NCBI GenBank assembly: GCA_032433765.1
Contig: JAVIAB010000051.1
Span: 152,518,114 to 152,582,113, forward strand
Direction of reading: 5' to 3'
From: Megaustenia siamemsis
Lineage: Eukaryota; Mollusca; Gastropoda; Stylommatophora; Ariophantidae
DNA: 64,000 nt
In this document: in pieces, positions 1,200 to 55,674 of the stretch
Position numbering within the stretch: position 1 is the first letter of the stretch
How the letters are laid out: each line of letters starts with the position of its first letter
Made by a program: the position numbers and the translations under genes
The notes under the pieces: model-generated
Databases searched by the model: none
Told to the model about the DNA's origin: nothing
The model's input: the letters and a program-made list of their open reading frames with translations, nothing else

Positions 1200-1950
1200 T
1201 AAGTCGATCCCTTCAACTCCCCTGATCACAAGGGCAAAGACGACATCCGTGTCACCGGTATTGTCCTTTGTCACTCTGGCGACCGCAGCCGCTATACTTT
1301 GGAAAATCGCATTATAGTCCAGTATGGTTCGCTGACCCCACGAGGTATGAATGTATCACACTCATACACATAGTTTCCTTTTGGTTGCTCCTTCCCTTTC
1401 GCATAGCCTTCTCTACTGCACATATTTGGGTTTTTTAGTCTACTTACTATGCCATGCTATTTATAGTTCTCCTCCTCGAGTCCCCAATGAGACACTTCGG
1501 TGTTCTCCTCTATACCTTTTTTCTGTGCTCCTTACCCTTATTTGTTTTTATTGTACCCCACTCTCGGACATCTCACTCTTGCTGCCTTTTGAGCACCTGT
1601 TGGTCTACTGTTCTTTTCTTTCCCCTTTGTGTTTGCACACTGACCCCTGTGTGAACTCCTCTTGTTCTGTGTGCATTTGCGCACATTTCTGCACGTTTCT
1701 TTACTTTCACGACAGCCGCACTTGGTTGCTATTTCTTTTTGTTTTGACCTCGGTTTACACACAGGATAGACAATTTTGTTTTCTTTAACACATTTCGATT
1801 GTTTTTGTTTTGGTTGTTTCGTTATTAGTTTTGTGTGTGTTTTTTTTTTTTGTTTGTTCCTGCTGAAAGGCCTATTGGGCCGAAACGTCGTTTGGTCTGT
1901 GTCGTCAACTTATCACGTAAAGCTTCTTACATACCATTTTTTTTCTATTT
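1200..1950 (+). mobile_element. Penelope-like element, 3' fragment
   Basis: The start of this fragment reads DHKGKDDIRVTGIVLCHSG and then DRSRYTLENRIIVQYGSL, TPRGMNVSHSYT, stop. This is the end of a PLE GIY-YIG endonuclease domain and matches the full domain at 17540-17830 (VLVTGLVSCSSDHHSRLTLE). About 490 bp of T-rich 3' untranslated sequence follows, then a conserved terminal block at 1858-1890 (ctgaaaggcc, gggccgaaacgtcg), the hammerhead-like motif seen at other PLE ends here. The terminal acgtaaagcttcttacata is shared with the PLE hairpin at 7524-7703. The RT part is missing. Confidence 0.8.
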
Positions 1951-2013
1951 TTTAATTTGTCATCAGTCGATCAGCAACGTAAGCAATGTTCTGTACGGTC
2001 ATTTCTTCACAGA

Positions 2014-3218: not shown

Positions 3219-3490
3219 GGTAGGTAAAGGTAAAAAAAAAAAAAATAAAGAGCCCCGTCACGCCAAATGGCGTATAGAGAATATGGTGTTAGTGACCATA
3301 ATTTTTATAGACCTTCGGCACATGATTTTTGGGGTAATGTGGTCGGTATTACGCCCATGCCGCTTTACTTTCTCAGAAAAAAATCCGGTGCACATTAAAG
3401 ACTGGATGAACCCGGAAGCCGTCGGTTGGGATCGAACCCTACCTCTTGTCCTTTGTAGTCCAATTCACTAACCACTGAACTATCGGTGAT
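3219..3490 (-). mobile_element. tRNA-derived SINE-1, copy in duplication unit 1
   Basis: On the reverse strand the element begins with a tRNA-like head. The A box is tagttcagtggttagtg and the B box is gggttcgatccc. A body with cgtaataccgaccacatta follows, and it ends in ggcgtgacggggctc and a T/A-rich tail. It is flanked by ataataatata at 3208-3218 and 3491-3501, a plausible 11-bp TSD, although AT-rich. Related copies lie at 5985, 12973, 26825, 38405, 54600, 58370, 58625 and 60383. Confidence 0.85.
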
Positions 3491-5965: not shown

Positions 5966-5984
5966 ATATAGGTAGGTAAAGGTA

Positions 5985-6240
5985 AAAAAAAAATAAATAA
6001 AGAGCCCCGTCACGCCAAATGGCGTATAGAGAATATGGTGTTAGTGACCATAATTTTTATAGACCTTCGGCACATGATTTTTGGGGTAATGTGGTCGGTA
6101 TTACGCCCATGCCGCTTTACTTTCTCAGAAAAAAATCGGTGCACATTAAAGACTGGATGAACCCGGAAGCCGTCGGTTGGGATCGAACCCTACCTCTTGC
6201 CCTTTGTAGTCCAATTCACTAACCACTGAACTATCGGTGA
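5985..6240 (-). mobile_element. tRNA-derived SINE-1, copy in duplication unit 2
   Basis: The same SINE as at 3219-3490, almost unchanged. The tRNA-like head is at the right end on the reverse strand and the ggcgtgacggggctc end at the left. Confidence 0.85.
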
Positions 6241-6861: not shown

Positions 6862-7425
6862 ATTATCATCATCATCATCATCATCACCATCATCATGTGC
6901 CATACCGGTTAGTGCAGGCGACCATGTCATTCTACAATCTTCTATCCACAGTGCATCGTATCGATTATGTTGTTGACTGTTTTCCATGTCATGACAGCAG
7001 GCTATCCAGTATTTTCCTGCCTTTTGCCTCTCTTTCCCCGCATTTTGGCAGCTGTAACCAAGCATTCCAACTTTCATCTTCTCATAATGTCCCTGAAAAA
7101 TGTGTTGATTGTTTCTTTCTGATGTCTTTAGAAGCTCCATTTTTTGTGTGGCCTCTTTGAGAATTTTCTCATTGGTCTTTTTATCTGTCCAGAGAATTTT
7201 CAACATTCTTCTAAGAAATTCCATATAATCGTCTTTTCATTTCTTGTTTACTGTCCATGATTCGCGTCCATATGTTAGAATTGGCTCTATATATCACCGA
7301 TGAATTCTCTTTCTCACTTCTTTTGACATCGACTTGTTTCAGAAGGCGATTTTCATTTTTTGGAAAATGATATTTTGGCTTGAGCTATTCTACTTTTTAT
7401 TTCTTTGGTGCGTCTGTCTGGTGTA
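6862..7425 (-). mobile_element. LINE-B 3' fragment (reverse)
   Basis: The reverse strand encodes FLRRMLKILWTDKKTNEKIL, then KEATQKMELLKTSERNNQHI, then KVGMLGYSCQNAGKERQ. This is the C-terminal region of a LINE-B ORF, followed by a (GAT)n tail at 6866-6895. Further upstream codons are visible, with frameshifts, to about 7425. The RT catalytic region is absent. Confidence 0.75.
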
Positions 7426-7523
7426 AGATCATTAAAAGGTTAAATCAATCAAAACAAGTTGGTCCACAGAAGAAAACCTATATGGTACAAAATCCAAAGG
7501 AAAAATAAAAAAATAAAAAAATG

Positions 7524-7703
7524 GTATGTAAGAGGCTTTACGTGACAAGTGGACGACACAGACTAAACAACGTTTCGGCTCAATAGGCCTTCATCAGGAA
7601 CAAACAAATAAACACACACACACACACAAAAATGAAGGCCTATTGAGCCGAAACGTTGTTTAGTTTGTGTCGTCCACTTGTCACGTAAAGCTTCTTACAT
7701 ACA
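7524..7703. repeat. Inverted repeat hairpin of PLE 3' ends
   Basis: The left arm 7524-7594 and right arm 7632-7703 are inverted copies of the same PLE terminal sequence, differing at only a few bases and separated by a 37-bp CA-rich spacer. Each arm carries ggcctattgagccgaaacg, the block shared with the other PLE ends. The left arm read on the reverse strand has a perfect ctgatga upstream of it. The outer ends match the last bases of the PLE fragment at 1200-1950. 7704-8084 contains no feature I recognise. Confidence 0.85.
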
Positions 7704-8084
7704 CTTTTTATTTTTTTTAATTTTTCCTCATATTCAGCTTTACTGCAGCTTCGCATTTTTATGCCTTAACCCTTTACAAAATCCAAACCAAGGCCACATT
7801 AAAAAAAGCTGCCAGCCTTTAGTACATGGATCTATGGATTTGAATTCAGGGAAACACAAAATAAAGCTAAAGTCTGCCACTTTTCCAAACTGCTGGGAAG
7901 AAAAAAAAAATCTATAATATTTCGTCATCTGTATGACCTACATAAAGCTGCATACGCTGAGTGGTTGAGGTGCTCACTATGAGCTAGCCAATGAAAAATA
8001 TAAGCACCTAGTCCATATTTACCATATGCTTAAATCGTGGAGGGAAGCCACTCCGTTATCTGTCACAACCCGCTTGGAGAAAAG

Positions 8085-8768
8085 TATCAGAATATTTTGT
8101 CTATTAAAGTTCAGGAGCGAAGATATCACGAGAAGATGCAACCAGGAGTTGGAATACAAGTGAAAACAAATCTCAAACAAGTGCAACGTGTCAAATACTT
8201 GGGCACAATAGTAACATCAGATGAATGATGCACCACAGAAATAAAAGCAGAATAGCTCAGGCCAGATTAGCATTTCAGAAAATGAAAAATATCTTATGCA
8301 ACAAATCTATGTCAATAGAAGTGAGAAAGAGAGTTCATCGGTGCTATATAGAACCAATTCTGACCCATGGAAGCAAATCATGGACAGTAGACAAACAAAT
8401 GAAAAGACGATTAGAGGTAACAGAGACATGATTTCTCAGACGAATGGTGAAAGTTCCCTGGACAGTTAAAAAGACCAATGAAGAAATTCTCACAGAGGCC
8501 AACACAAAAAGGGAACTCCTAAAAAAACATCAGAAAGAAACAATCAACATTTTTTGGGCACATCATGAGAAGAGGAAAGTTGGAATACTTGATTACAAAT
8601 GACAAAATAAAAGGAAAGTGAGATCGCGGACGATAAAGAGAGAAAATACTGGATAGCTTGATGTCATGGCAAGGAAAACAGTCAACAACAGAACTGATAC
8701 GATGCACTGTAGATAGAAGATTGTGGAAGGACATGATCGCCTACGCCAGCTGTTATGGCATATGATGA
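8085..8768 (+). mobile_element. LINE-B 3' fragment
   Basis: The readable order of blocks is VKTNLKQVQRVKYLGTIVTS, KSRIAQARLAFQKMKNILCN, RCYIEPILTHGSKSWTVD, PWTVKKTNEEILTEANTKRE and then a degraded tail ending in catatgatgatgataa. YLG, the alpha-helical KSRI...MKN segment and the YG.E.WT block are the thumb and connector features of RTE-like LINE ORFs downstream of the RT palm. Stops separate the blocks, so it is inactive. 8769-9139 shows nothing recognisable. Confidence 0.75.
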
Positions 8769-9139
8769 TGATAATAATTAATTGCTCTAAAGACATTACG
8801 GACAAATACCTTTACATGTTTCCTCTATAAACGGTTACCCAAACACAACTAGCAGACAGAAAGCAGGCATTCTGTGGTCCGGACTTCCTGCAAGGGGGAT
8901 AATACGCTGCCATTTCCATTCTTCAAGAAAGAGACAAAGGGAGACAATAATTCATAATGAAATGCGCTCTTAATGATCTTGTGTTTACAACCAACAGCTG
9001 ACTGGGCTTATTAAATTGAAAATCATTTAAGCAGAGGCTGTATAATTGAGGGCTGGCTGTAAATTTTGAGCTGAACCGTTGAAGCGTGAATACGTTCAGC
9101 TGTAATTATTTGTTGGGTTTATGGATACTTGCATGCACA

Positions 9140-10782: not shown

Positions 10783-11990
<1,208 letters not shown>

Positions 11991-12972: not shown

Positions 12973-13220
12973 TATCGGGAGCTCAGTGGTTAGTGAACTA
13001 AACTACAAAGGACAAGAGGTAGGATTCGATCCCAATCGACAGCTTCTGGGTTCACCCAGCCTTAAATGGGTACCTGATTTTTTTCTGGGAAAGTAAAGCG
13101 GCACGGGTGTAATACCGACCACATTACCCCTAAAATCATGTGCCAAAGGTCTGTAAAATATGGTCACTAACAACATATTTCCTATACGCCACTTGGCGTG
13201 ACGGGGCTCTTACTTTTTTT
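12973..13220 (+). mobile_element. tRNA-derived SINE-1 with 14-bp TSD
   Basis: The head has an A box (agctcagtggttagtg) and a B box (ggattcgatccc), so it carries an internal pol III promoter. The family body and the ggcgtgacggggctc end follow. The direct repeat attttatgctttta at 12959-12972 and 13221-13234 flanks it exactly, a clean 14-bp TSD showing LINE-mediated insertion. Confidence 0.92.
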
Positions 13221-13234
13221 ATTTTATGCTTTTA

Positions 13235-13795
13235 CATCTCTAACAAATCTATATTTCATGACTTTTGCATCTCTAACAAATATATATTTCATGACTTTTG
13301 CATCTCTAACAAATATATATTTCATGACTTTTGTATCTCTAACAAATCTATATTTCATGACTTTTGCATCTCTAACAAATATATATTTCATGACTTTGCA
13401 TCTCTAACAAATATATATTTCATGACTTTTGTATCTCTAACAAATCTATATTTCATGACTTTTGCATCTCTAACAAATATATATTTCATGACTTTTGCAT
13501 CTCTAACAAATCTATATTTCATGACTTTTGTATCTCTAGCAAATCTATATTTCATGACTTTTGTATCTCTAACAAATCTATATTTCATGACTTTTGTATT
13601 TTTAACAAATCTATATTTCATGACTTTTGTATCTCTAACAAATCTATATTTCATGACTTTTGTATCTCTAACAAATCTATATTTCATGACTTTTGTATCT
13701 CTAACAAATCTATATTTCATGTCTTTTGTATCTCTAACAAATCTATATTTCATGACTTTTGTATCTCTAACAAATCTATATTTCATGACTTTGGT
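13235..13795. repeat. 33-bp minisatellite (~17 units)
   Basis: The unit is catctctaacaaatctatat then ttcatgactttt. It starts right at the downstream TSD of the SINE. 33 is a multiple of three, so both strands show repetitive ORFs. 13800-14225 has no recognised feature. Confidence 0.95.
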
Positions 13796-15635: not shown

Positions 15636-16192
15636 TCGATGATGTCAGAGAGAGAACAACATGGTACAGGAAGAAACAGATGGATGATGCCGGACAGAGA
15701 ACAACATACTAGAGGGAGAAACAGATAGATGATGCCAGATAGAGAACAACATGGTAGAGGAAGAAACAGATAGATGATGCCAGATAGAGAACAAACATGG
15801 TACAAAAAGAAACAGATAGATGATGCCAGATAGAGAACAACATGGTACAGGACGAAAGAGATAGATGATGCCAGATAGAGAACAACATGGTAGAGGAAGA
15901 AACAGATAAATGATGCCAGATAGAGAACAACATGGTAGAGGAAGAAACAGATAGATGATGCCAGATAGAGAACAGCATAGTAGAGGGAGAAAGAAATGGA
16001 TGATGTCAGACAGAGAACAGCATAGTAGAGGGAGAAACAGATGAATGATGCCAGACATAGAACAGCATGATAGAGGAGAAACAGATGAATGATGTCAGAG
16101 AGAGAACAACATACTAGAAGGAGAAACAGATGGATGATGCCAGATAGAGAACAACATGGTAGAGGAAGAAACAGATGGTGATGCCAGATAGA
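15636..16192. repeat. 45-bp satellite, left block (~12 units)
   Basis: The unit is gatgatgccagatagagaac followed by aacatggtagaggaagaaac and agata. The same satellite resumes at 21657 on the far side of the PLE palindrome, so the two blocks were probably once one array. Confidence 0.95.
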
Positions 16193-16263
16193 GGAGCCAA
16201 TGGTGGGGTGTGCTAAACACTCCAAGGTATGGTGACAGCTTTACAAATAAAGAACACAACACA

Positions 16264-16300
16264 ATACTGACGTTTCGGCCTGTGGCCTTCTTCAGAATAC
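16264..16300 (-). ncRNA. Hammerhead-like ribozyme motif, left PLE arm
   Basis: Reverse-complement twin of the motif at 21504-21540: ctgaaga, a ggcc/ggcc stem with an aca loop, gaaa, then cgtc. See the right-arm entry for the pairing. Hammerhead motifs are known from PLEs, but activity here is inferred only. Confidence 0.5.
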
Positions 16301-17539
16301 AGGGACAACGACAACAAGCGGTGAAGCACAATTACTACATGTTAGATGATCAAGTGGAGGGCGAGGAAAGTAGGATGCAGAAATAAGAAAAGAGAGAAAT
16401 GAATTTTACATGATGAGAGGTATGATGGGCGTCAAAATATATAAAATAGAAAAAGAGAGAGAAAAATGTATAATAAATTGTACTTAGCTGAGCTCAGAGC
16501 AGGAAAACTGTAATCCGTGCTGAAACCAGTCGGAATGACTAAAAGCGCAGAGAACGTGTATAGAAAGCAACACGTGACAAAGACAGGTCAGTAAAGAGGG
16601 CAAAAAGGATCTAATATCGGGAAAACCAAAAGGGGGGGGGGGAAGGGGGATAGACGAGGACACTCCTGGGACACAACAAGCAATACATATAAATCACTCA
16701 ACAATGGAAGTGAGAGATCACGCGAGAGGTTAAGAGAAAGAAATAGAATGACACGACAAAGTAGTAAACTAGGCAGTGGGTGAGAGAGATGGACTCTACA
16801 GAATGGATGGCCTCGAACTGAAAGAGTTGAGAGGTAGGTCAACGAAAGGAAGGATTGGATACTGGAGGAAGAGATACGGTGAGGAAGAATAATAAAGCCG
16901 GTATAATGAGAAGGGCGATAGAGGGGTGGTCCGGAGGAAGTTAGTCTATCGGGAGGTAGGGAAGTATTGGAGGAGGAGGTATGGAGAGGAGGGATAAGAA
17001 GCAGGTATGTGAAAACTGGATAGGGGGAGAGGCGGTAGGTCAGAAGTGAATGGAAAAAGAGAAAGTCTGGAAGAAGTGGAGCAATAGGGGATGGTGTGCA
17101 AGAGGTATGAACCATAGGAGGTAAAGAAGTAGGGAAATGATAGAACAAAGGGGGGAATGAAAGTGGGCATCAGGATAAGGGGGATACTGGAATAGTAGGT
17201 ATAGATGAGTAGTGACTACAAGTTAATAGAGAGGAGAGGGGTGAGCTAGGAGTAGATCAGCAGAGGGGTGGTAGGAAGGACGAGGGACAATAGAGGTGGG
17301 CAGAGAGATCGTACGTACAGTCCAGGTGGAGAGGTGATATAGTGATAAAGAGGTAAAGGACATGAAGGTAGTCAGAAGAGAAAAAGGTGTAGGGAGAGGG
17401 GGGGGTTTAGGAGGAAGAAGGCAAGATGGGGGTTACTCAAAGAGGATATGAAAAGCAGGGATGGACGAGGAGTAGAGGACCCAAGAAGAGAAATAGGAAG
17501 AGAGGTCCAAGGAGGGTGGAGTCGGAGGCCGGAGGGTCC

Positions 17540-19091
17540 TCAGAGGGACAGGGATACATTGATGCCACGAGGGGTGAGGCAGCCCCAACGAGCGATCAGA
17601 CGGTGCTCAAGAGTGAGCCGACTGTGGTGATCAGAGGAGCATGATACTAGGCCAGTTACCAAGACATCAGTCTTACCTCGATGGCCCCTCGAGTTAAAGT
17701 GGGCTGCTACAGGAGTGTCCGCTTCTTGGGTGATGTCATTCAAGTGTTCACGGCACCTATCGCCGATTCTGCGACCAGACTGACCGATGTAGGTCAACTT
17801 GCATCGCTTACAGATGATGGCATAAATGATGTTCCGCGATGTGCAAGTGAATCCCTCTCTGATCTCGAAAGGACCATTAGGGAAGAGGACAGTGTCGGTC
17901 TGGAGAACGTGGTCACAAGTTTTACATACTCTCCGGTTGCAGCGGATAGTGCCTCGATGGCTGAAGTGGTCAGCAGGAAGACGGCCCCTGACAAGAAAGT
18001 CTCGGAGGTTCCGGTCACGTCTAAAGGCCACTAGTGGTGGGTCAGGGAAGAGCAGACGAGTAGTAGGGTCAGATCGAAGAATAGGGAGGTAGCGGTGGAT
18101 GGTCCTAATAGCGGCGTAGTGGTGAGGGTGATGGGTGAGAGCGAGCACTACTCTATCAGAGGGGGGATGAGTAGAGGGGGTAAGAGCAGACTGACGTGAA
18201 GTGTGGAGAACTCGACGCAGGGCAGGGAGGAGAGCTGATTCAGGATAGAGACGTCGGCGGAAGAAATCAAGCATAAGGTGGGCATTGTGAAGGAAATCTT
18301 CGTCGTCTTGGCAAAGGCGACGAAGTCTGAGAAGCTGGGAATAGGGAAGAGAGTTCTTGCAGGATGTAGGATGAGAGGAGTCGTAGCGGAGGAAACTATG
18401 GGAGTCAGTGGCCTTGTAGAAGACCGAGGTGAGAAGATGAGAGGTGCCCAAGGAGACTAGGATGTCCAGGAAAGATACGGAGGAGGTGGAGATGTGGAAG
18501 GTGATGTGGATAGAGGGGTGGAAATGTCCGACATATTCGATGAAACGGGAGATCTCATCTTCTGGAAGGTCAGACAGACCAATGCAGTCATCAATGTACC
18601 TACGATACATGAGGGGAAGAGGGCCCTGGTAGGTATGGATGATTTGGTGCTCAAGGTAACCCATGAAGAGACAAGCATAGCTAGGGCCCATTTTAGTGCC
18701 CATCGCCTCACCGCTGATCTGGGTGAAGAAATTGCCATTGAACTCGAAAGAGTTGAGGTTCAAGACTAATTCTGCTAGACGGAGGAGGACGCCAGTGACG
18801 ATGGAGGGTTGGATCCTACGGTCCAGGAAAAACTGAAGAGCTTGAAGGCCGTCGGAGTGGGGAATAGAAGTATACAGGGAGCAGACATCCATAACGAAGA
18901 GGCGGTAGTGACGATCAGGAAGGAGGGTGATAGAGGAAAAGATGTTAAGGGCGTCGTTAGTGTCTTTGACATACGAAGGGAGGCCCATAACTATGGGTTG
19001 AAAGACACTGTCGAGGAAGTCAGAAATGAGAACAGTAGGACATGAGATGGAAGAGACAATAGGACGTCCAGGAGAGTCAGGTTTATGTATA

Positions 19092-19093
<2 letters not shown>
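17540..19093 (-). CDS. PLE reverse transcriptase / GIY-YIG endonuclease, 5'-truncated
   Basis: The protein would copy PLE RNA into DNA and nick the target through its C-terminal nuclease. The first Met is at 18988 (482 codons to the stop), but the frame stays open upstream to about 19093 and includes PDSPGRPIVSS, a conserved PLE block before the palm. The real N terminus is therefore missing. From that Met: motif A VCSLYTSIP near residue 33, motif B GEAMGTKMGPSYACLF near 95, catalytic YIDD near 130, then FLDILVS. A Cys cluster (CNRRVCKTC) precedes the GIY-YIG domain from about 387 (IIYAI, YIGQSGRRIGDR, with catalytic-type Glu in TLEHRL). No internal stop or frameshift is seen. Known PLEs are longer at the N terminus. 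Confidence 0.9.
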
Positions 19094-19142
<49 letters not shown>

Positions 19143-19160
19143 TATATATTATTTATATAT
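19093..19160. repeat. (TA)n microsatellite at the palindrome centre
   Basis: A TA tract of about 65 bp with minor interruptions lies where the 5' truncation points of the two PLE copies meet. Confidence 0.95.
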
Positions 19161-19162
19161 AT

Positions 19163-20261
19163 CCATACCTACCAGGGCCCTCTTCCCCTTATGTATCGTA
19201 GGTACATTGATGACTGCATTGGTCTGTCTGACCTTCCAGAAGATGAGATCTCCCGTTTCATCGAATATGTCGGACATTTCCACCCCTCTATCCACATCAC
19301 CTTCCACATCTCCACCTCCTCCGTATCTTTCCTGGACATCCTAGTCTCCTTGGGCACCTCTCATCTTCTCACCTCGGTCTTCTACAAGGCCACTGACTCC
19401 CATAGTTTCCTCCGCTACGACTCCTCTCATCCTACATCCTGCAAGAACTCTCTTCCCTATTCCCAGCTTCTCAGACTTCGTCGCCTTTGCCAAGACGACG
19501 AAGATTTCCTTCACAATGCCCACCTTATGCTTGATTTCTTCCGCCGACGTCTCTATCCTGAATCAGCTCTCCTCCCTGCCCTGCGTCGAGTTCTCCACAC
19601 TTCACGTCAGTCTGCTCTTACCCCCTCTACTCATCCCCCCTCTGATAGAGTAGTGCTCGCTCTCACCCATCACCCTCACCACTACGCCGCTATTAGGACC
19701 ATCCACCGCTACCTCCCTATTCTTCGATCTGACCCTACTACTCGTCTGCTCTTCCCTGACCCACCACTAGTGGCCTTTAGACGTGACCGGAACCTCCGAG
19801 ACTTTCTTGTCAGGGGCCGTCTTCCTGCTGACCACTTCAGCCATCGAGGCACTATCCGCTGCAACCGGAGAGTATGTAAAACTTGTGACCACGTTCTCCA
19901 GACCGACACTGTCCTCTTCCCTAATGGTCCTTTCGAGATCAGAGAGGGATTCACTTGCACATCGCGGAACATCATTTATGCCATCATCTGTAAGCGATGC
20001 AAGTTGACCTACATCGGTCAGTCTGGTCGCAGAATCGGCGATAGGTGCCGTGAACACTTGAATGACATCACCCAAGAAGCGGACACTCCTGTAGCAGCCC
20101 ACTTTAACTCGAGGGGCCATCGAGGTAAGACTGATGTCTTGGTAACTGGCCTAGTATCATGCTCCTCTGATCACCACAGTCGGCTCACTCTTGAGCACCG
20201 TCTGATCGCTCGTTGGGGCTGCCTCACCCCTCGTGGCATCAATGTATCCCTGTCCCTCTGA
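19163..20261 (+). pseudogene. PLE RT / GIY-YIG ORF, truncated right copy
   Basis: The frame starts within the RT palm just before the catalytic YIDD (YRRYIDDC) and runs open to the same stop as the left copy (NVSLSL). Motifs A and B are missing, so the RT cannot be functional, while the Cys cluster and GIY-YIG domain are complete. The apparent start codon at 19026 lies in antisense sequence of the other copy and the frame crosses the TA repeat, so it is not a real start. Confidence 0.85.
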
Positions 20262-21503
20262 GGACCCTCCGGCCTCCGACTCCACCCTCCTTGGACCTCT
20301 CTTCCTATTTCTCTTCTTGGGTCCTCTACTCCTCGTCCATCCCTGCTTTTCATATCCTCTTTGAGTAACCCCCATCTTGCCTTCTTCCTCCTAACCCCCC
20401 CCCTCTCCCTACACCTTTTTCTCTTCTGACTACCTTCATGTCCTTTACCTCTTTATCACTATATCACCTCTCCACCTGGACTGTACGTACGATCTCTCTG
20501 CCCACCTCTATTGTCCCTCGTCCTTCCTACCACCCCTCTGCTGATCTACTCCTAGCTCACCCCTCTCCTCTCTATTAACTTGTAGTCACTACTCATCTAT
20601 ACCTACTATTCCAGTATCCCCCTTATCCTGATGCCCACTTTCATTCCCCCCTTTGTTCTATCATTTCCCTACTTCTTTACCTCCTATGGTTCATACCTCT
20701 TGCACACCATCCCCTATTGCTCCACTTCTTCCAGACTTTCTCTTTTTCCATTCACTTCTGACCTACCGCCTCTCCCCCTATCCAGTTTTCACATACCTGC
20801 TTCTTATCCCTCCTCTCCATACCTCCTCCTCCAATACTTCCCTACCTCCCGATAGACTAACTTCCTCCGGACCACCCCTCTATCGCCCTTCTCATTATAC
20901 CGGCTTTATTATTCTTCCTCACCGTATCTCTTCCTCCAGTATCCAATCCTTCCTTTCGTTGACCTACCTCTCAACTCTTTCAGTTCGAGGCCATCCATTC
21001 TGTAGAGTCCATCTCTCTCACCCACTGCCTAGTTTACTACTTTGTCGTGTCATTCTATTTCTTTCTCTTAACCTCTCGCGTGATCTCTCACTTCCATTGT
21101 TGAGTGATTTATATGTATTGCTTGTTGTGTCCCAGGAGTGTCCTCGTCTATCCCCCTTCCCCCCCCCCCCCTTTGTGGTTTTCCTGATATTAGATCCTTT
21201 TTGCCCTCTTTACTGACCTGTCTTTGTCACGTGTTGCTTTCTATACACGTTCTCTGCGCTTTTAGTCATTCCGACTGGTTTCAGCACGGATTACAGTTTT
21301 CCTGCTCTGAGCTCAGCTAAGTACAATTTATTATACATTTTTCTCTCTCTTTTTCTATTTTATATATTTTGACGCCCATCATACCTCTCATCATGTAAAA
21401 TTCATTTCTCTCTTTTCTTATTTCTGCATCCTACTTTCCTCGCCCTCCACTTGATCATCTAACATGTAGTAATTGTGCTTCACCGCTTGTTGTCGTTGTC
21501 CCT
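20262..21503 (+). other. PLE 3' untranslated region (right copy)
   Basis: About 1.25 kb of pyrimidine-rich sequence lies between the PLE stop codon and the terminal motif. Its mirror is 16301-17539. Open frames here on both strands are composition artefacts (Ser/Pro/Leu-rich). Confidence 0.75.
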
Positions 21504-21540
21504 GTATTCTGAAGAAGGCCACAGGCCGAAACGTCAGTAT
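21504..21540 (+). ncRNA. Hammerhead-like ribozyme motif, right PLE arm
   Basis: The order is gtatt, ctgaaga (21509-21515), a, ggcc-aca-ggcc hairpin, gaaa (21528-21531), cgtc, agtat. The core matches CUGANGA...GAAA...GUC, with stem II from the two ggcc blocks. Stem I forms from gtatt with agtat (five pairs, two of them G-U). Stem III would be only two pairs, as described for minimal hammerheads in PLEs, which may need dimers to cleave. One extra A between core and stem II is atypical. Confidence 0.5.
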
Positions 21541-21656
21541 TGTGTTGTGTTCTTTATTTGTAAAGCTGTCACCATACCTTGGAGTGTTTAGCACACCCCA
21601 CCATTGGCTCCTTGCTACCAGCTTTACCGCAGCATTGCAATTATTTGCCTGTTCCC

Positions 21657-24600
21657 ATGCCAGATAGAGAACAACATGGTAAAGGAAGAAACAGATAGAT
21701 GATGCCAGATAGAGAACAACATGGTAGACGAAGAAACAGATGGATGATGTCAGAGAGAGAACAACATGGTAGAGGAAGAAACAGATAGATGATGCCATAT
21801 AGAGAACAACATGGTAGAGGAAGAAAGAGATGGATGATGTCAGATAGAGAACAAAATGGTACAGGAAGAAACAGATGAATGATGTCAGACAGAGAACAAC
21901 ATACTAGAGGGAGAAACAGATAGATGATGCCAGATAGAGAACAACATGGTAAGGGAAGAAACAGATAGATGATGCCAGATAGAGAACAACATGGTAGAGG
22001 AAGAAACAGATAGATGATGCCAGATAGAGAACAACATGGAAGAGGAAGAAATAGATGGATGATGTCAGAGAGAGAACAACATGGCAGAGGAAGAAACAGA
22101 TAGATTATGCCAGATAGAGAACAACATGGTAGAGGAAGAAACAGATGGATGATGCCAGATAAAGAACAACATGGAAGAGGAAGAAAGAGATGGATGATGT
22201 CAGATAGAGAACAACATGGAAGAGGAAGAAACAGATAGATGATGCCAGATAGAGAACAACATGGAAGAGGAAGAAAGAGATGGATGATGCCAGATAGAGA
22301 ACAATATGGTAGAGGAAGAAACAGATAGATTATGCCAGATAGAGAACAACATGGTAGAGGAAGAAAGAGATGGATGATGTCAGATAGAGAACAAAATGGT
22401 ACAGGAAGAAACAGATGAATGATGTCAGACAGAGAGCAACATGGTAAGGGAAGAAACAGATAGATGATGCCAGATAGAGAACAACATGGTAGAGGAAGAA
22501 ACAGATAGATGATGCCAGATAGAGAACAACATGGAAGAGGAAGAAAGAGATGGATGATGTCAGAGAGAGAACAACATGGCAGAGGAAGAAACAGATAGAT
22601 TATGCCAGATAGAGAACAACATGGTAAGGAAGAAACAGATAGATGATGCCAGATAGAGAACAACATGGTAGAGGAAGAAACAGATAGATGATGCCAGATA
22701 GAGAACAACATGGAAGAGGAAGAAAGAGATGGATGATGTCAGAGAGAGAACAACATGGCAGAGGAAGAAACAGATAGATTATGCCAGATAGAGAACAACA
22801 TGGTAGAGGAAGAAACAGATGGATGATGCCAGATAAAGAACAACATGGAAGAGGAAGAAAGAGATGGATGATGTCTGATAGAGAACAACATGGAAGCGGA
22901 AGAAACAGATAGATGATGCCAGACAGAGAACAACATGGAAGAGGAAGAAAGAGATGGATGATGTCAGAGAGAGAACAACATAGTAGAGGAAGAAACAGAT
23001 AGATTATGCCAGATAGAGAACAACATGGTAGAGGAAGAAACAGATGGATGATGTCAGAGAGAGAACACCATGGTAGAGGAAGAAACAGATGGATGATGCC
23101 GGACAGAGAACACCATGGTAGAGGAAGAAAGAGATGAATGATGCCAGACAGAGTACAACATGGTAGAGAAAGAAACAGATAGATGATGCCAGATAGAGAA
23201 CAACATGGTACAGGAAGAAACAGATAGATGATGCCAGACAGAGAACAACATACTAGAGGGAGAAACAGATAGATGATGCCAGATAGAGAACAGCATAGTA
23301 GAGGGAGAAAGAAATGGATGATGTCAGACAGAGAACAGCATAGTAGAGGGAGAAACAGATGAATGATGCCAGACATAGAACACCATGATAGAGGGAGAAA
23401 CAGATGAATGATGTCAGAGAGAGAACAACATACTTGAAGGAGAAACAGATGGATGATGCCAGAGAGAGAACAACATGGTAGAGGAAGAAACAGATGAATG
23501 ATGCCAGACAGAGAACAACATACTAGAGGGAGACACAGATAGATGATGCCAGATAGAGAACAACATGGTAGAGGAAGAAACAGATAGATGATGCCAGATA
23601 GAGAACAACATGGTAGAGGAAGAAAGAGATAGATGATGCCAGATAGAGAACAACATGGTACAGGAAGAAAGAAATGGATGATGTCAGAGAGAGAACAACA
23701 TGGTACAGGAAGAAACAGATAGATGATGCCAGATAGAGAACAACATGGTAGAGAAAGAAACAGATAGATGATGCCAGATAGAGAACAACATGGTAGAGGA
23801 AGAAACAGATGGATGATGCCAGATAGAGAACAACATGGTAAAGGAAGAAACAGATAGATGATGCCAGATAGAGAACAACATGGTAGAGGAAGAAACAGAT
23901 GGATGATGTCAGAGAGAGAACAACATGGTAGAGGAAAAACAGATAGATGATGCCAGACATAGAACACCATGGTAGAGGAAGAAACAGATGGATGATGTGA
24001 GACAGAGAACGCCATGATAAAGGGAGAAGCAGATTAATGATGCCAGACAGAGAACAACATACTAGAAGGAGAAAGAGATGGATGATGCCAGACAGAGAAC
24101 AGCATAGTAGAGGGAGAAAGAAATGGATGATGTCAGACAGAGAACAGCATAGTAGAGGGAGAAATAGATAGATGATGCCAGATAGAGAACAACATGGAAG
24201 AGGAAGAAAGAGATGGATGATGTCAGAGAGAGAACAACATGGCAGAGGAAGAAACAGATAGATTATGCCAGATAGAGAACAACATGGTAGAGGAAGAAAC
24301 AGATGGATGATGCCAGATAAAGAACAACATGGAAGAGGAAGAAAGAGATGGATGATGTCAGATAGAGAACAACATGGAAGAGGAAGAAACAGATAGATGA
24401 TGCCAGATAGAGAACAACATGGAAGAGGAAGAAAGAGATGGATGATGTCAGAGAGAGAACAACATAGTAGAGGAAGAAACAGATAGATTATGCCAGATAG
24501 AGAACAACATGGTAGAGGAAGAAACAGATGGATGATGTCAGAGAGAGAACACCATGGTAGAGGAAGAAACAGATGGATGATGCCGGACAGAGAACACCAT

Positions 24601-25690
24601 GGTAGAGGAAGAAACAGATAGATGATGCCAGATAGAGAACAACATGGTAGGGGAAGAAACAGATAGATGATGCCGGACAGAGAACAACATGGTAGAGGAA
24701 GAAACAGATAGATGATGCCAGATAGAGAACAACATGGTAGAGGGAGAAAGAGATGAATGATGCCAGACAGAGTACAACATGGTAGAGAAAGAAACAGATA
24801 GATGATGCCAGATAGAGAACAACATGGTACAGGAAGAAACTGATAGATGATGCCAGACAGAGAACAACATACTAGAGGGAGAAACAGATAGATGATGCCA
24901 GATAGAGAACAGCATAGTAGAGGGAGAAAGAAATGGATGATGTCAGACAGAGAACAGCATAGTAGAGGGAGAAACAGATGAATGATGCCAGACATAGAAC
25001 ACCATGATAGAGGGAGAAACAGATGAATGATGTCAGAGAGAGAACAACATACTTGAAGGAGAAACAGATGGATGATGCCAGAGAGAGAACAACATGGTAG
25101 AGGAAGAAACAGATGAATGATGCCAGACAGAGAACAACATACTAGAGGGAGACACAGATAGATGATGCCAGATAGAGAACAACATGGTAGAGGAAGAAAC
25201 AGATAGATGATGCCAGATAGAGAACAACATGGTAGAGGAAGAAAGAGATAGATGATGCCAGATAGAGAACAACATGGTACAGGAAGAAAGAAATGGATGA
25301 TGTCAGAGAGAGAACAACATGGTACAGGAAGAAACAGATAGATGATGCCAGACAGAGAACAGCATAGTAGAGGGAGAAAGAAATGGATGATGTCAGACAG
25401 AGAACAGCATAGTAGAGGGAGAAATAGATGAATGATGTCAGAGAGAGAACAACATAGTAGAGGAAGAAACAAATGGATGATGTCAGAAAGAGAACAACAT
25501 AGTAGAGGAAGAAACAAATGGATGATGTCAGAGAGAGAACAACATAGTAGAGGAAGAAACAGATGGATTATGTCAGAGAGAGAACAACATAGTAGAGGAA
25601 GAAACAGATGGATGATGTCAGAGAGAGAACAACATAGTAGAGGAAGAAACAGATGGATTATGTCAGAGAGAGAACAACATGGTAGATGGC
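21657..25690. repeat. 45-bp satellite, right block (~89 units) with higher-order structure
   Basis: The same 45-bp unit as 15636-16192. Variant units occur in a fixed order that recurs. About 22695-23700 is repeated at about 24180-25320, with an offset near 1485 bp (33 units), rising to near 1620 bp (36 units) after a three-unit insertion around 24600-24740. Reverse ORFs of up to 733 codons (LFLPLPCCSLSGIIY repeats) exist because 45 is divisible by three. Overlapping frames are also open, so I do not call a gene. Confidence 0.95.
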
Positions 25691-26217: not shown

Positions 26218-26540
26218 ATGTTGAAAGTTCCCTGGACAGCTAAAAAGACCAATGAGGAAATTCTCAAAGAGGCCAACACAAAAAGAGAGCCCATAAGAAA
26301 CGTCAGAAAGAAACAATCGACATTTTCCTTGCACGTTATGAAAAGAGGAAAGTTGGAATACTTGGTTACAACTGGCAAAAAAAAAAAGAGAAAGAGAGAT
26401 CGCGGACGACAAAGACGACATATCTTGATGTCATGGCATGGAAAACAGTCAACAACAGAATTGAAACGATGCGCTGTGGATAGAGAATTGTGGAAGGATA
26501 AGGTCACTTACACCAACATGTATAGCAGAGGATGATAATA
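26218..26540 (+). mobile_element. LINE-B 3' fragment
   Basis: An almost open frame reads MLKVPWTAKKTNEEILKEAN, TKREPIRNVRKKQSTFSLHV, KRGKLEYLVTTGKKKK and HGKQSTTELKRCAVDRELWK. It is 5'-truncated and ends in gatgataa. 26541-26824 has nothing recognised. Confidence 0.75.
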
Positions 26541-33744: not shown

Positions 33745-34345
33745 AAAAATAAACAGAACAAATCTGAAACAAGTCAACGCGTTAAATACTTGGGCAAAAA
33801 AAAAATCAGTTGGAAGATGCACCACAGAAATAAAAAGCAGAATAGCTAAGGCCAAAATAACATTTCAGAAAATAAAAAAAAACGTCTTACGCAACAAGTC
33901 TATGTCAATATAAGTGAGAAAAATTTCATCGGTGCTACATAGAGCCAATTCTGACCTTTGGAAGCGAATCATGCACAGTAAACAAAGGAATGGAAAGATG
34001 ATTAGATGGAATTTTTCAGAAGAATGTTGAAAATTCCATGGGCAGCTAAAAAGACCAATGACGAAATTCTCAGAGGCCAACACAAAAACGGAGCTCCTAA
34101 GAAACATCAGAAAGAAATAATCAACATTTTTTGAGCACATCATGAGAAGAAGAAAGTTGGAATACTTGGTCACAACTGGCAAAATAAAAGGAAAAGAGAT
34201 AGCGAACAACAAAGAGAGACGATACTAGATAGCTGGGTGTCATGGTATGGAAAACAGTCAACAACAGAACTAATACGATGTAATGTTGATAGAAGATTGT
34301 AGAAGGACATGATTGCCATCGCCAACCGGTGTGGCACATGATGAT
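33745..34345 (+). mobile_element. LINE-B 3' fragment, decayed
   Basis: Blocks KINRTNLKQVNALNTWA, KSRIAKAKITFQKIKKNVL, RRMLKIPWAAKKTNDEILR and WSTTELIR-like sequence are seen between frameshifts. The end is catgatgataatg. 33395-33740 and 34350-35090 contain no recognised feature. Confidence 0.65.
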
Positions 34346-40790: not shown

Positions 40791-41089
40791 TTTTGATTTT
40801 ACAATGAAATTTTTTTTTTAAAGGAATAATGTGGTATGGTTGCATCTTTACGTAGGCGGGGAACAAAACAAAAGCAGAAGGACATTTCGACTAAGTTAAA
40901 TGTTCAGCCTAATGTTAAGGAGTTGGTAAACCGTTCAGCCTCCAATCGGGGCTTTGTTTAACCTCTTGTTGTTAACAAATTTGTTCAGCTCCCATTCCCC
41001 TTAAGAGGAACGTAACAAAGAACGAAGTTTAATTTTGTAGTTGTTTGGAAATAAAATATGAAAATGTATCAAACATCGACTACCCCAAC

Positions 41090-43294: not shown

Positions 43295-43902
43295 GTTAAA
43301 TAAACAGGACAAATCTGAAACAAGTGCAACGCGTCAAATACCTGAGCACAATAATAACATCAGATGGAAGATGCACCACAGAAATAAAAAGCAGAATAGC
43401 TCAGGTCAAAAAGCATTTCAGAAAATGAAAAACGTCTTATGCAACAAATCTATGACAATAAAAATGAGAAAGAGAGTTATCGGTGCTATATAGACCCAAT
43501 TCTGACCTATGGAAGCGACAATAGGACATCATGGACAAGAGACAAACAAATACGATTAGAGGCCACAGAGATGAGATTTATCAGAAGAATGTTGAAAGTT
43601 CCCTGGACAGCTAAAAAGACCAATGAGGAAGTTCTCAAAGAGGCTAACACAAAAAGGCAGCTCCTAAAAAACATCAGAAAGAAACAATCAACATTTTTCG
43701 GGCACATCATAAGAAGAGGAAAGTTGGAATACTTAGTTACAGCTGGCAAAATAAAAGGAAAAAGATATCGCGGACGACAGAGAGAAGATAGCTTGGTGTC
43801 ACGGCATGGAAAACAGTCAACAACAGAATTGATACGATGCACTGTGGATAAGTTTGTGGAAGGACATGATCGTCTACGTCAACCGGTGTGCACATGATGA
43901 TG
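43295..43902 (+). mobile_element. LINE-B 3' fragment, best preserved
   Basis: The frame reads RCYIDPILTYGSDNRTSW, RDKQIRLEATEMRFIRRMLK, VPWTAKKTNEEVLKEANTKR, KQSTFFGHIIRRGKLEYLV and GKQSTTELIRCTVDKFVEGH, ending cacatgatgatgataa. Upstream, QVQRVKYL-like codons start near 43315 in another frame. This is the longest uninterrupted LINE-B reading (152 codons from 43439) and still lacks the RT palm. 43905-44495 is AT-rich and unassigned. Confidence 0.78.
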
Positions 43903-44499
43903 ATAAGGATAAGAATTAAAGGTGGATTGTAGTATATCATAATGAAAATATAATTTTAGAAGCTACATCATGAGAAAGTGGCAAATGAGAATGTGACATA
44001 TTACAATATAGCAAACTAACAAAAGGAAATGTGACGAAATACAATATAACAAAGTATCAAAGAGATTAAAGTATAACATAGTGATAAAGGGAATTTGACA
44101 GCTTTAGTATAACAACATATTGATATAAATGATTGTGACAGACTACTTTCAACAAAGTGACAAAAGCGATGTTACAGACTGCTTTTCATTCTTTCATTAT
44201 TCCTCCTGTGTTTACTCGAAATCTGAAAGAATAAATAATCCACTCGGTCGTCCATCCCGTAAAAGGGCGTTAAATGGACGTAGATGCTCTGTGGTGTCGT
44301 TTGCAGCAAAGCTGTGAAATTTACGCTTTTTGGCCCATTACATCCAAATCCAGCATGATGTTTTTGAGCACCGGGTTGTCTTTCCTTTCAATCCTTGCTC
44401 ACTGAGACTGGCTGGTCTATTCAAGGGGCACCGCAAAGAGGTGGTGTGGGATATCGGTAGTTTATGTTCGTCGATCCTGTCGCAATCAATCTGTTATGA

Positions 44500-49406: not shown

Positions 49407-49677
49407 CTTCTTTTCTCTTTCACTGATACCTAAAAGGTGTCGTAGTTTATATCATTTGTCGTTCTTGAGCTGCTCGAACTGTCTGAATTTGTGATTTTCC
49501 TTTGTTGTTACATGTCTCTGTCACTGCATCTATCCATCTTCTTCTTTTCTCTTTTCACTGGTACCGAAAAGGTGTCGTGGTTTATATCATTTGTCGCTCT
49601 TGAGCTGCTCGAACTGTCTGAATTAGTGATTTCCCTTTGTTGTTACATGTCTCTGTCACTGCATCTATCCATCTTCT
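49407..49677 (-). repeat. 135-bp direct duplication at LINE-G 3' end
   Basis: Two copies (about 49407-49541 and 49542-49677) share aaaaggtgtcgtngtttata and the run to catctatccatcttcttct. The right copy is continuous with the LINE-G coding tail, so the 3' end of the element has been duplicated. Confidence 0.85.
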
Positions 49678-50500
49678 TCTGGGTCTTCCTCTTGGTCTTT
49701 TTCCATGCATTTTCGAGAAGAACGTCCTTGATGGTGATTGGTAAGGATTCATTCTGACCAGGTGGCCAAACCATTTAAGTTGTTGTTCTATATCTTCTTG
49801 GCAGGGTTTTGTTCCACCCATTTTTCTTATGGTTTCATTTGGTATTCTATCTTTTCTTGTGTTGTTTGTTACTTTTCTCAAGCATCGTATCTCACATGTA
49901 TTGATCTTTCTAAATTGTGATTTAGAAAGGGTCCATGTTTGACTTTCGTAGCACAAAGTTGATATGAAAATGCTATTTATCATTTGTTGTTTAGCTGGCA
50001 TAGAAATGTTTGGATGTCCTAGCAATGGTGAAAGCTGGTATGTGACAGCATTTGCTTTTCGTATTCTCATGTCAATTTCTCTGTCAAATTTTCCATCTTT
50101 TGTGAACATTGTGCCCAAATACTTGAATTCCTCTACTTGTTTTATTTCTTTATCTTGATCTTAATGTTTAATGGGTGTCTTAATTTGCTTATTCTTATAG
50201 CCTCTGTTTTTGTGGTGTTAATTTTCATACTGTATTTTGTGCAGCTTTTATCAAGAGATGTTAAATGCTGTTGTAGCAGGTTTTCATCCTCATATATTAG
50301 GCATTGGTCATCTGCGAAGAGTAGCTCGTTGATGTTGGAGTTTTCTATCTCTATGTTATTATTTGATTTTTCCTTATTGTTGGTTGTTTCTTGATTTATT
50401 TTGCCCATATATATGATGAAGAGGAGTGGTGAGAGGACACATCCTTGTCTTACACCTGTTATTACAATAGTGAATGTTACAATTGTATGCGATACTGTAC
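49564..50500 (-). mobile_element. LINE-G (RTE-like), 5'-truncated
   Basis: The reverse strand from about 50480 reads VITGVRQGCVLSPLLFIIYM (RT motif B), INELLFADDQCLIYEDENLL (catalytic FADD intact), KCYSMKINTTKTEAIRISK-like sequence and, after a stop near 50142, MGTMFTKDGKFDREIDMRIR, CYESQTWTLSKSQFRKINTC, CLRKVTNNTRKDRIPNETIR, QLKWFGHLVRMNPY and KRPRGRPRRRWIDAVTETC. Motif A and everything upstream is missing. Confidence 0.85.
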
Positions 50501-52393: not shown

Positions 52394-53502
52394 CTATCTT
52401 TCTATTGACCTTTCGAGCCGTAACCGGCCCATAGGGCGTAGACCAAGATACACCTTCTCCTATATGAATTTTTGTTCTAGCAGTTTTCTTTTAAAGATAT
52501 TTTATCAAATCTCGCCATCTGTCTCTGTTCTGTGCAAGCAGTTCTATCTCATTGAGGGAGCCGATTCCTGCTGCTCTTGCCTCTCTCATCAATGTTCTTC
52601 TCAGTGTCTCCCTGGGTCTTCCTCTTTTTCTTTTACCTGTTGTTTCCCATATGAGGGCTTGCTTTGCTATTCGATTATTATCTCTTCTCATCACATGTCC
52701 AACGTATGACCATCGTCTTTTCTTTATTACTGAAGATATTAGTGGTTGATTGGCGATTTCTCTAATTTCCTCGTTTGTTTTGAATTCGTTCCATTCTATA
52801 CCAAGTATTTTCCTTAGACATTTATTTTCGAATGCGTTCAACTTTGTTTCTATATCTCTTGTTGTTTTCCAGCTTTCACACGCATACGTAAGGGTTGATA
52901 GTACATTTGATTTGAATAGCCTAAGTTTTGTGTTTGTGCTAATGAGTTTTGATTTCCACAACTTTTCAAGGCTTCTGAAAGACATTGCTGCTTTAGCCAG
53001 TCTGATTCTAATTTCTTTGCTCGTATCCCCTTCTCGATCAATGTGACTTCCAAGATAGATGAAGTGATCGATCTCTTCTACTGGTTTGTTTTCCATGTAT
53101 ATTTTGTCACTTGTTGGAATTAAACTTTTCATGACTTTAGTCTTTTCATGATTGACCTCAAGCCCAATTTTGCTGGCTATTGATGATAGTTCATTTGTGT
53201 TTTCCTGCATCGTTTTTATCTGATTGCTGATGAGAACTATGTCATCAGCAAAGTCCAGGTCCTCCAAATGGTCTCCTTGTATCCATTCGATGCCTTTATT
53301 ACCAGTGCAGCATTTCTTCATTATGAAGTCCATAACAATTCCAAATAACAAGGGCGATAAAATACATCCTTGTTTAACCCCAGTTTCTATTGGAAACATT
53401 CGCTCAGTCCTTCCTCTGTTCGAACTGCACATGTGTAACCATCATACATGTCTTTGATAATATTTATGATTTTTGATGGTAAGCCATAAAAATTTTTTTT
53501 TC
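52394..53502 (-). mobile_element. RTE-like LINE, best copy, 12-bp TSD
   Basis: Reference copy of the family at 2302, 5059 and 31838. It is bounded by cattttggtatt at 52382-52393 and 53503-53514. The 3' end (left) has a short TATC-like tail after cctttcgagccgtaaccgg. It is 5'-truncated within the RT and inserted next to LINE-A in opposite orientation. Confidence 0.92.
52491..53432 (-). CDS. RTE-like reverse transcriptase C-terminal ORF, 5'-truncated
   Basis: 313 codons from the first Met, without stops. RT motif B is ETGVKQGCILSPLLFGIVMD (residues ~17-36) and catalytic FADD lies in DLDFADDIVL near 66. The thumb has SKIGLEVNHEKTKVMKS, and YLGSHIDREGDTSKEIRIR lies near 128. The connector has LSTLTYACESWK and CLRKILGIEWNEFKT near 210. 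The C-terminal DNA-interacting block is RRWSYVGHVMRRDNNRIAKQ then KRKRGRPRETLRRTL. Motif A and the APE endonuclease are absent, and codons before the Met (YDGYTCAV) continue only to about 53480, so this is a remnant that has stayed open. Confidence 0.88.
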   Translation of the reverse strand: MCSSNRGRTERMFPIETGVKQGCILSPLLFGIVMDFIMKKCCTGNKGIEWIQGDHLEDLDFADDIVLISNQIKTMQENTNELSSIASKIGLEVNHEKTKVMKSLIPTSDKIYMENKPVEEIDHFIYLGSHIDREGDTSKEIRIRLAKAAMSFRSLEKLWKSKLISTNTKLRLFKSNVLSTLTYACESWKTTRDIETKLNAFENKCLRKILGIEWNEFKTNEEIREIANQPLISSVIKKRRWSYVGHVMRRDNNRIAKQALIWETTGKRKRGRPRETLRRTLMREARAAGIGSLNEIELLAQNRDRWRDLIKYL

Positions 53503-55310: not shown

Positions 55311-55335
55311 TGTTGCAGCTTCGCTGTCAAGGGAC

Positions 55336-55665: not shown

Positions 55666-55674
55666 TTACTGTGG

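What the first reader, a model, noticed from the sequence alone, without database searches (positions are those of the whole stretch)
16193..21612. Near-perfect 5.4-kb palindrome of two Penelope-like elements inside a satellite
Arms of about 2.45 kb (16193-18640 and 19161-21612) carry the same RT/GIY-YIG ORF and 3' region in opposite directions, with only a few differences. The two 5' truncation points meet at a TA microsatellite and a 450-bp piece of RT unique to the left copy. 3' ends face outward into the 45-bp satellite on both sides. PLEs are known to insert as tandem or inverted partial copies. This one is unusually long and clean, and one arm still has an open RT.
Basis: partly seen in the sequence, partly recalled or inferred. 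Interest (0 to 1): 0.75.

Follow-up and report, generated by a model that had tools for sequence, protein, structure and literature searches.

The report
Two-sided Penelope retrotransposon insertion, long palindrome
A jumping gene of the Penelope type appears to have copied itself from both sides of one chromosome cut, leaving a near-perfect 5.4-kb mirror-image insertion whose unequal ends may record how these little-understood elements integrate.

Summary
The palindrome is real in the assembly: arms 16192-18640 (antisense) and 19161-21612 (sense) align over 2,452 columns with 3 mismatches and 3 gap columns. They encode the C-terminal part of a Penelope-like (PLE) RT/GIY-YIG protein. The insertion is larger than reported: the right copy has a further 44-bp 3' 'tail', found on two other copies in the window, and a 13-bp target-site duplication brackets the whole.

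The left copy has 450 bp that the right lacks; the right has a tail that the left lacks. So neither arm is simply a copy of the other, which argues against fold-back artefact, hairpin self-priming and later inverted duplication. A smaller, older head-to-head insertion at 7486-7787 repeats the plan: 13-bp TSD, one tailless and one tailed arm, same inner stop.

Best explanation: one integration in which both 3' ends of a staggered cut primed reverse transcription on two RNAs, at the two start sites known for PLEs in vitro. The general architecture is published; the long, clean arms and the paired, mechanism-separating examples are the new part. Reads were not available and the host-genome search did not complete, so misassembly is unlikely but not excluded.

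The parts
15638..16193 (+). 45-bp satellite array, left flank
   Evidence: TRF; same orientation as right flank
16181..16193 (+). left copy of 13-bp target-site duplication ATGCCAGATAGAG (last 2 bp shared with the arm alignment)
16192..18640 (-). left palindrome arm: PLE 3' part, ends at the inner start site (no tail)
   Evidence: 99.755% to right arm
16226..16244 (-). left copy of the conserved GTAAAGCTG..CATACC motif, upstream half of the possible tail stem
16269..16280 (-). GGCCGAAACGTC, hammerhead-ribozyme-like core (motif recalled; no Rfam hit)
   Evidence: Rfam negative
17540..19093 (-). open reading frame, 517 codons: RT from IHKPDSPGRP on, plus C-terminal GIY-YIG
   Evidence: (RVT_1 E 9e-6, GIY-YIG E 3.9e-4, both under Pfam's cut-offs)
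18641..19090 (-). 450 bp of RT coding sequence present only in the left copy
19084..19162 (.). TA-rich tract (TRF limits) at the junction of the two 5'-truncated copies; does not fit the expected coding sequence
19161..21612 (+). right palindrome arm: PLE 3' part
19203..19214 (+). RT catalytic YIDD (mirror at 18587-18598 on -)
19161..20261 (+). 366 codons in frame to the same stop, with GIY-YIG
21524..21535 (+). GGCCGAAACGTC, hammerhead-like core in the right copy
21613..21656 (+). 44-bp 3' tail, only on the right copy; holds CAGCTTTACCGCAGCATTGCA (21619-21639)
21657..21669 (+). right copy of the 13-bp target-site duplication
21657..25686 (+). 45-bp satellite array, right flank
7486..7498 (+). 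second insertion: left TSD TACAAAATCCAAA (last base shared with the arm alignment)
7499..7631 (-). second insertion: left, tailless arm, including 37 bp (7595-7631, with a CA run) absent from the right arm but matched by the copy at 1829-1961
7632..7774 (+). second insertion: right arm with 46-bp tail (CAGCTTTACTGCAGCTTCGCA at 7735-7755)
7775..7787 (+). second insertion: right TSD TACAAAATCCAAA
55690..55868 (-). old PLE 3' end with the same tail, ends in TTCCC
1829..1961 (+). single PLE 3' end whose match stops at about the inner site; no tail found at up to 3 mismatches

Best explanation
It is one integration event of a GIY-YIG-bearing Penelope-like retrotransposon in which both DNA ends of a 13-bp staggered cut primed reverse transcription. 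The element's endonuclease cut both strands of the satellite. The exposed 3' end on the left primed cDNA synthesis at the inner start site of one element RNA (no tail). The 3' end on the right primed at the outer start site of a second RNA (with tail). The two cDNAs grew towards each other, stopped at different 5' truncation points (450 bp apart), and were joined through a TA-rich filler. Fill-in of the staggered ends gave the 13-bp TSD around the whole. Shown here: arms, tail asymmetry, TSD, reciprocal unique ends, and a second insertion with the same layout. Inferred: two RNAs, simultaneous priming, end joining, origin of the TA filler. Published in vitro for an anole PLE, not shown here: cutting and extension of both strands, and two internal start sites that bound the tail.
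For: One 13-bp TSD brackets the pair and none of its 8-mers occurs inside the insert; with random break points in the two satellite arrays a match of exactly 13 bp arises in 82 of 20,000 draws and of 8-16 bp in 923 of 20,000. Reciprocal unique sequence: left-only 450 bp, right-only 44-bp tail. The tail is element sequence: 3 matches to its core in the window at up to 3 mismatches, against a mean of 0.01 in 100 shuffles, all at PLE 3' ends. The 7.5-kb insertion repeats the layout outside any TRF array: 13-bp TSD, tailless left arm, right arm with 46-bp tail, and a left-only 37-bp centre that matches another copy. The inner stop lies at the same homologous place in both, after ..CCT and 6 nt before CAGCTTTAC; the match of the single copy at 1829-1961 stops within about 1-2 nt of it. 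Frangieh et al. 2024 (PMC11167929; text parts 1-2 of 4 read): the anole PLE cleaves and extends both strands, and its tail lies between two RT start sites. Arkhipova et al. 2013 (PMC3846280; passages and Discussion): rotifer copies with inverted pLTRs, a tail on one of them, and TSDs of 8-10 bp in three described cases.
Against: Only two head-to-head cases, both from one window. No reads; the host-genome search was unanswered 7 of 7 times. The nick sites deduced for the palindrome (GATAGAG^AACAAC; GGCAT^CACC on the other strand) are not the ATT motif reported for the anole enzyme. For 4 single 3' ends I found no convincing TSD within 9 kb at 10 bp or more (three 10-mers for one end, nothing for three). 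The centre of the long palindrome does contain a short palindrome, because the TA run is self-complementary (19-bp arms), as the self-priming model would have it. The tail stem is predicted in 2 of 3 copies, not in the old one. No hammerhead reached Rfam thresholds. In the rotifer paper some Penelope insertions have no TSD, so a TSD is not universal.
Confidence: 0.72

Rival explanations
1. Self-priming: an antisense element RNA folds back on itself and primes its own copy, giving a head-to-head hairpin that is then integrated. This was proposed for rotifer Penelope elements.
For: Arkhipova et al. 2013 infer it from palindromes at head-to-head junctions. The TA tract here is self-complementary (19-bp arms without a loop).
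Against: The copied arm should be contained in the template arm, but each copy has an end the other lacks, in 2 of 2 head-to-head insertions found in the window. The centre of the 7.5-kb insertion (7585-7650) holds no perfect inverted repeat with arms of 8 bp or more and a loop up to 30.
Confidence: 0.08
2. [quoted passage not shown]
For: PLE mRNA is proposed to span several copies (Frangieh et al. 2024). It would also give one TSD around the whole.
Against: The left end would then be a random 5' truncation or carry donor flank, yet in both insertions it stops at the homologous inner site.
Confidence: 0.07
3. Two separate insertions side by side, or one insertion followed by inverted duplication of the DNA.
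For: PLEs occur in tandem and may nick their own pLTR (Frangieh et al. 2024).
Against: No 8-mer of the TSD occurs inside the insert, so there is no TSD around a single arm. DNA duplication cannot create the right-only tail and the left-only 450 bp without further deletions.
Confidence: 0.05
4. Assembly artefact: a fold-back read chimera, or a misjoin at the TA tract of two genuine single insertions in the same satellite.
For: Near-identical palindromes and satellites are hard to assemble; the rotifer study reports that long tandem or inverted Penelope structures could not be assembled at first. Two of the six differing columns lie in a poly-C run. TA runs are weak joining points.
Against: A fold-back would invert the flanks, but the satellite runs the same way on both sides (core 7 and 36 times on +, never on -). 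The ends differ by element-specific sequence, a 13-bp TSD fits, and a second, older insertion has the same plan.
Confidence: 0.08

Closest known systems
Head-to-head Penelope copies with inverted pLTR, e.g. Pen2a_Av in the rotifer Adineta vaga (PMC3846280, passages and Discussion seen)
   Same: RT/GIY-YIG element, outward 3' ends, short TSD around the whole (9 bp for Pen2a), optional tail on one of the inverted ends
   Different: For Pen2a the inverted piece is about 0.2 kb; here both arms are 2.45 kb at 99.755% identity with a TA-rich junction. The same paper mentions long inverted structures for Pen3/Pen4, so length alone is not unique. It does not, in what I saw, score reciprocal against contained ends
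Anole Poseidon element PAc, in vitro system (PMC11167929, parts 1-2 of 4 and a term search seen)
   Same: Two internal RT start sites that bound a 30-40-nt tail; both DNA strands cut and extended
   Different: In vitro on a defined target with a preferred ATT motif not seen here; a term search of the main text gives no mention of head-to-head or palindromic insertions
LINE-1 twin priming, 5'-inverted insertions (PMC2912911, passages seen)
   Same: Both DNA ends prime reverse transcription; TSD around an inverted junction
   Different: In L1 both ends anneal to the same RNA (passage), so the pieces are different parts of it (recalled); here the same 2.45 kb is present twice, which calls for two RNAs and priming at defined start sites on both sides

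Membership tests
Penelope-like elements, GIY-YIG-bearing (canonical) | RT with C-terminal GIY-YIG endonuclease in one ORF | tested here: met
   RVT_1 (E 9e-6, 26 bits, cut-off 29.6) and GIY-YIG (E 3.9e-4, 21.1 bits, cut-off 22.6), both under Pfam's cut-offs; 49-63% identity to 7 aligned homologues chosen from 120 listed; YIDD present
Penelope-like elements, GIY-YIG-bearing (canonical) | Optional 30-40-bp 3' tail on some copies | tested here: met
   44 and 46 bp, on 1 arm of each of 2 head-to-head insertions; a third tail core at 55707-55727 on -. Slightly longer than published
Penelope-like elements, GIY-YIG-bearing (canonical) | Short TSD and 5' truncation | tested here: met
   13-bp TSD at 2 of 2 head-to-head insertions; for 4 single ends none convincing; both copies of the palindrome 5'-truncated
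Penelope-like elements, GIY-YIG-bearing (canonical) | Hammerhead ribozyme in the pLTR | tested here: inconclusive
   GGCCGAAACGTC found by pattern, CTGAAGA upstream of it by eye; no Rfam hit; activity not testable
Penelope-like elements, GIY-YIG-bearing (canonical) | Tandem or partial-tandem copies making pLTRs | tested here: inconclusive
   No direct second copy found in the window, but both copies are 5'-truncated, so a pLTR-ORF-pLTR unit cannot be expected here
Endonuclease-deficient PLEs | No GIY-YIG domain | tested here: not met
   GIY-YIG match present, under the curated cut-off
LINE-1-type twin priming | Two different pieces of one RNA | tested here: not met
   The two copies overlap over 2.45 kb

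The most novel reading that the evidence does not exclude
PLE integration is intrinsically two-sided. A dimeric enzyme primes from both cut strands, one half starting at the inner and the other at the outer start site, so that one tailless and one tailed arm around a 13-bp TSD is the default product, and single copies are those in which one cDNA failed or was trimmed. The TA tract would then be made by the telomerase-related RT itself by repeated copying of TATA at the 5' truncation point.
Probability: 0.25. Interest if true: 0.75.

Novelty: new member of a known kind. Interest (0 to 1): 0.5.

Why it matters
How Penelope-like elements, retroelements that share an ancestor with telomerase, integrate is still open. 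Test-tube work showed cutting and extension of both strands and two start sites; an earlier genomic study favoured antisense self-priming for head-to-head copies. This locus and the smaller one beside it are natural insertions whose end points separate the two models: reciprocal unique ends with a single TSD are expected from two-sided priming but not from self-priming. The test is simple (score both arms of every head-to-head copy for contained versus reciprocal ends) and can be run on any genome rich in these elements. A transcribed 2.45-kb inverted repeat could also be a source of double-stranded RNA against the element (inference, untested).

Tried and rejected
Chance inverted repeat: rejected. 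A whole-window scan for inverted repeats (E up to 1e-4, 50 columns or more, low-complexity filter on) found no other pair as long or as close in sequence; the next longest has 558 columns at 79.9%. The 7.5-kb insertion appears there as a self-overlapping match of 232 columns. Fold-back artefact: disfavoured by non-inverted flanks and unequal ends. L1-style twin priming from one RNA: rejected because the copies overlap. Hammerhead by Rfam: no hit at gathering threshold for the window, and at E up to 10 for 21400-21700 only a lncRNA match at E 9.9. Relatives in viral contigs: none by protein or by two patterns. Solved structures: no sequence match at E up to 0.01. TSDs for 4 single PLE ends: none convincing. 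Tail stem GTAAAGCTG/CAGCTTTAC: predicted in 2 of 3 copies, so only suggestive. The alignment of the three tails does not align the upstream stem half of the 7.5-kb copy, so I used it only for the tail itself.

Literature: in the listings of 8 paper searches and the passages that I opened I saw no derivation of head-to-head PLE copies from priming on both strands. This is weak evidence of absence: the library holds open-licence papers only, Craig et al. 2021 was not held, and the older Penelope papers (2001-2006, known to me from reference lists and recall) were not looked up.

Full report
What is there. The window looks like animal DNA (inference from the element and its relatives, below) and is full of minisatellites (78 TRF rows). 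Between 16181 and 21669 a 45-bp satellite is interrupted by two copies of the 3' part of a Penelope-like element (PLE) in opposite directions, 3' ends outward. The arms 16192-18640 and 19161-21612 align over 2,452 columns with 3 mismatches and 3 gap columns. One mismatch lies in the ORF and is synonymous by inspection (CTC/CTT); the other two lie downstream of the stop. Both copies keep an open frame through the catalytic YIDD of the RT and the GIY-YIG domain to the same stop. The left copy begins at IHKPDSPGRP in the RT, the right one just before YIDD. Five of the seven relatives aligned are 794-904 aa long and carry several hundred residues more at the N-terminus.

Relatives and host. The 517-aa ORF has 459 hits at E up to 1e-3 among 7,995 scored candidates, 120 of them listed. 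The best is labelled Arion vulgaris, a slug (63% identity); Bradybaena, Biomphalaria and Physella are among the best named hits. Arion and Bradybaena are stylommatophoran gastropods.

The ends. The right copy runs 44 bp beyond the arm, to 21656. This stretch is element sequence: its core occurs 3 times in the window at up to 3 mismatches (7735, 21619, and 55707 on -), against a mean of 0.01 in 100 shuffles, each time at a PLE 3' end. It corresponds to the optional 'tail' described for PLEs (31 bp in A. vaga Pen2a, PMC3846280 passages; 30-40 bp, PMC11167929). The left copy lacks it. Outside both copies lies ATGCCAGATAGAG, once on each side (16181-16193, 21657-21669), and none of its 8-mers occurs inside the insert. 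Because the flanks are a satellite, a direct repeat could be an accident of register. Drawing random break points in the two arrays gave exactly 13 bp in 82 of 20,000 draws and 8-16 bp in 923 of 20,000. The left TSD and the arm alignment share 2 bp (AG), a possible priming microhomology. The satellite runs the same way on both sides (exact core 7 times left and 36 times right on +, never on -).

A second case. A pattern scan for the PLE 3' motif and a scan for inverted repeats showed another head-to-head insertion at 7486-7787. Its TSD TACAAAATCCAAA (13 bp) is not in a TRF array; a direct repeat of 8 bp or more at two random positions arises in 23 of 20,000 draws. The left arm is tailless, the right arm has a 46-bp tail. 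The arms match at 90 of 97 columns, so it is older or less homogenised. The left arm has 37 bp at the centre, including a CA run, that the right arm lacks; it matches the copy at 1829-1961, so it is element sequence. In both insertions the tailless arm stops at the homologous point, after ..CCT and 6 nt before CAGCTTTAC. Of eight PLE 3' ends seen in the window I could assign six: three stop at this inner site (left arms of both insertions; the copy at 1829-1961, whose match stops within about 1-2 nt) and three at the outer one (two right arms; 55690). The two others (40.8 kb on -, 60.7 kb on +) resemble each other (82% over 79 columns) and were not assigned.

How it most likely arose. The strongest argument is containment. 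A palindrome made by copying one arm from the other (fold-back read, hairpin self-priming, inverted duplication) has one arm contained in the other. Here the left has 450 bp that the right lacks and the right has 44 bp that the left lacks, and the 7.5-kb insertion shows the same reciprocity (37 and 46 bp). Each arm therefore needs its own copying from an RNA, unless deletions followed in both. With one TSD around both arms, the simplest route is that both 3' ends of one staggered cut primed reverse transcription, at the two start sites, and the cDNAs were joined at the centre. Frangieh et al. 2024 showed for an anole PLE in vitro that both strands are cut and extended and that the tail lies between two start sites (parts 1-2 of 4 read); a term search of the main text gives no mention of head-to-head or palindromic copies. 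Arkhipova et al. 2013 interpret head-to-head copies as self-priming on an antisense template (Discussion read). The present loci speak for the first and against the second, on two examples only.

The TA tract. The left copy's sequence ends at ATACATAAACC (IHK codons). The tract then consists of TA repeats with interruptions and joins the right copy at ATCCATACC with a 2-bp overlap (AT). It does not fit the expected coding sequence (LPKIHKP in relatives), so it is probably untemplated: slippage by the RT on TATA, end-joining synthesis, or later microsatellite growth. Nothing here separates these. The run is self-complementary (19-bp arms), which the self-priming model would also expect; the centre of the 7.5-kb insertion has no such repeat (arms of 8 bp or more, loop up to 30).

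Tail structure. GTAAAGCTG upstream of the inner site can pair with CAGCTTTAC in the tail, so the inner start would lie in the loop. The minimum-free-energy fold shows this in 2 of 3 copies (z -2.6 and -3.5) and not in the old copy (z 0.6). Suggestive only.

Limits. No reads, no genome, one window. The deduced nick sites do not show the ATT motif of the anole enzyme. TSDs were not found for 4 single ends. A misjoin at the TA tract remains possible. The age statement is relative only; gene conversion between the arms could also keep them alike.

Verdict. It is notable for its long, clean arms and because its ends, together with the 7.5-kb insertion, give natural evidence for priming from both sides of one cut.

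Noticed in passing
7486-7787: Miniature head-to-head PLE insertion with 13-bp TSD, one tailless and one tailed arm, arms 90 of 97 columns alike; used as the key comparison.
   Followed up: yes
55690-55868 (-): Old PLE 3' end with tail, close beside a 22-bp minisatellite (55333-55669).
   Followed up: partly
1829-1961 (+), 40811-40889 (-), 60687-60764 (+), 59551-59600 (+): Further PLE remnants; the 40.8 and 60.7 kb ends resemble each other and run into A-rich stretches; the 59.5 kb piece matches the GIY-YIG region and seems by eye to continue to about 59850.
   Followed up: partly
whole window: Very dense minisatellites (31, 33, 34, 35, 40, 45, 54, 61 bp units and others), including an 874-bp TAGA tract at 11022-11895.
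   Followed up: no
6880-7414, 8227-8778, 33815-34345, 43369-43910, 26218-26536: A dispersed repeat of about 0.5 kb present several times at roughly 76-81% identity; unidentified.
   Followed up: no
3224-3481, 5976-6232, 12980-13235, 60385-60629, 58355-58529: A dispersed repeat of about 0.25 kb at roughly 74-89% identity, SINE-like in length; unidentified.
   Followed up: no
52491-53441 (-), 49582-50160 (-): ORFs that look like LINE reverse-transcriptase fragments (by eye; not searched).
   Followed up: no
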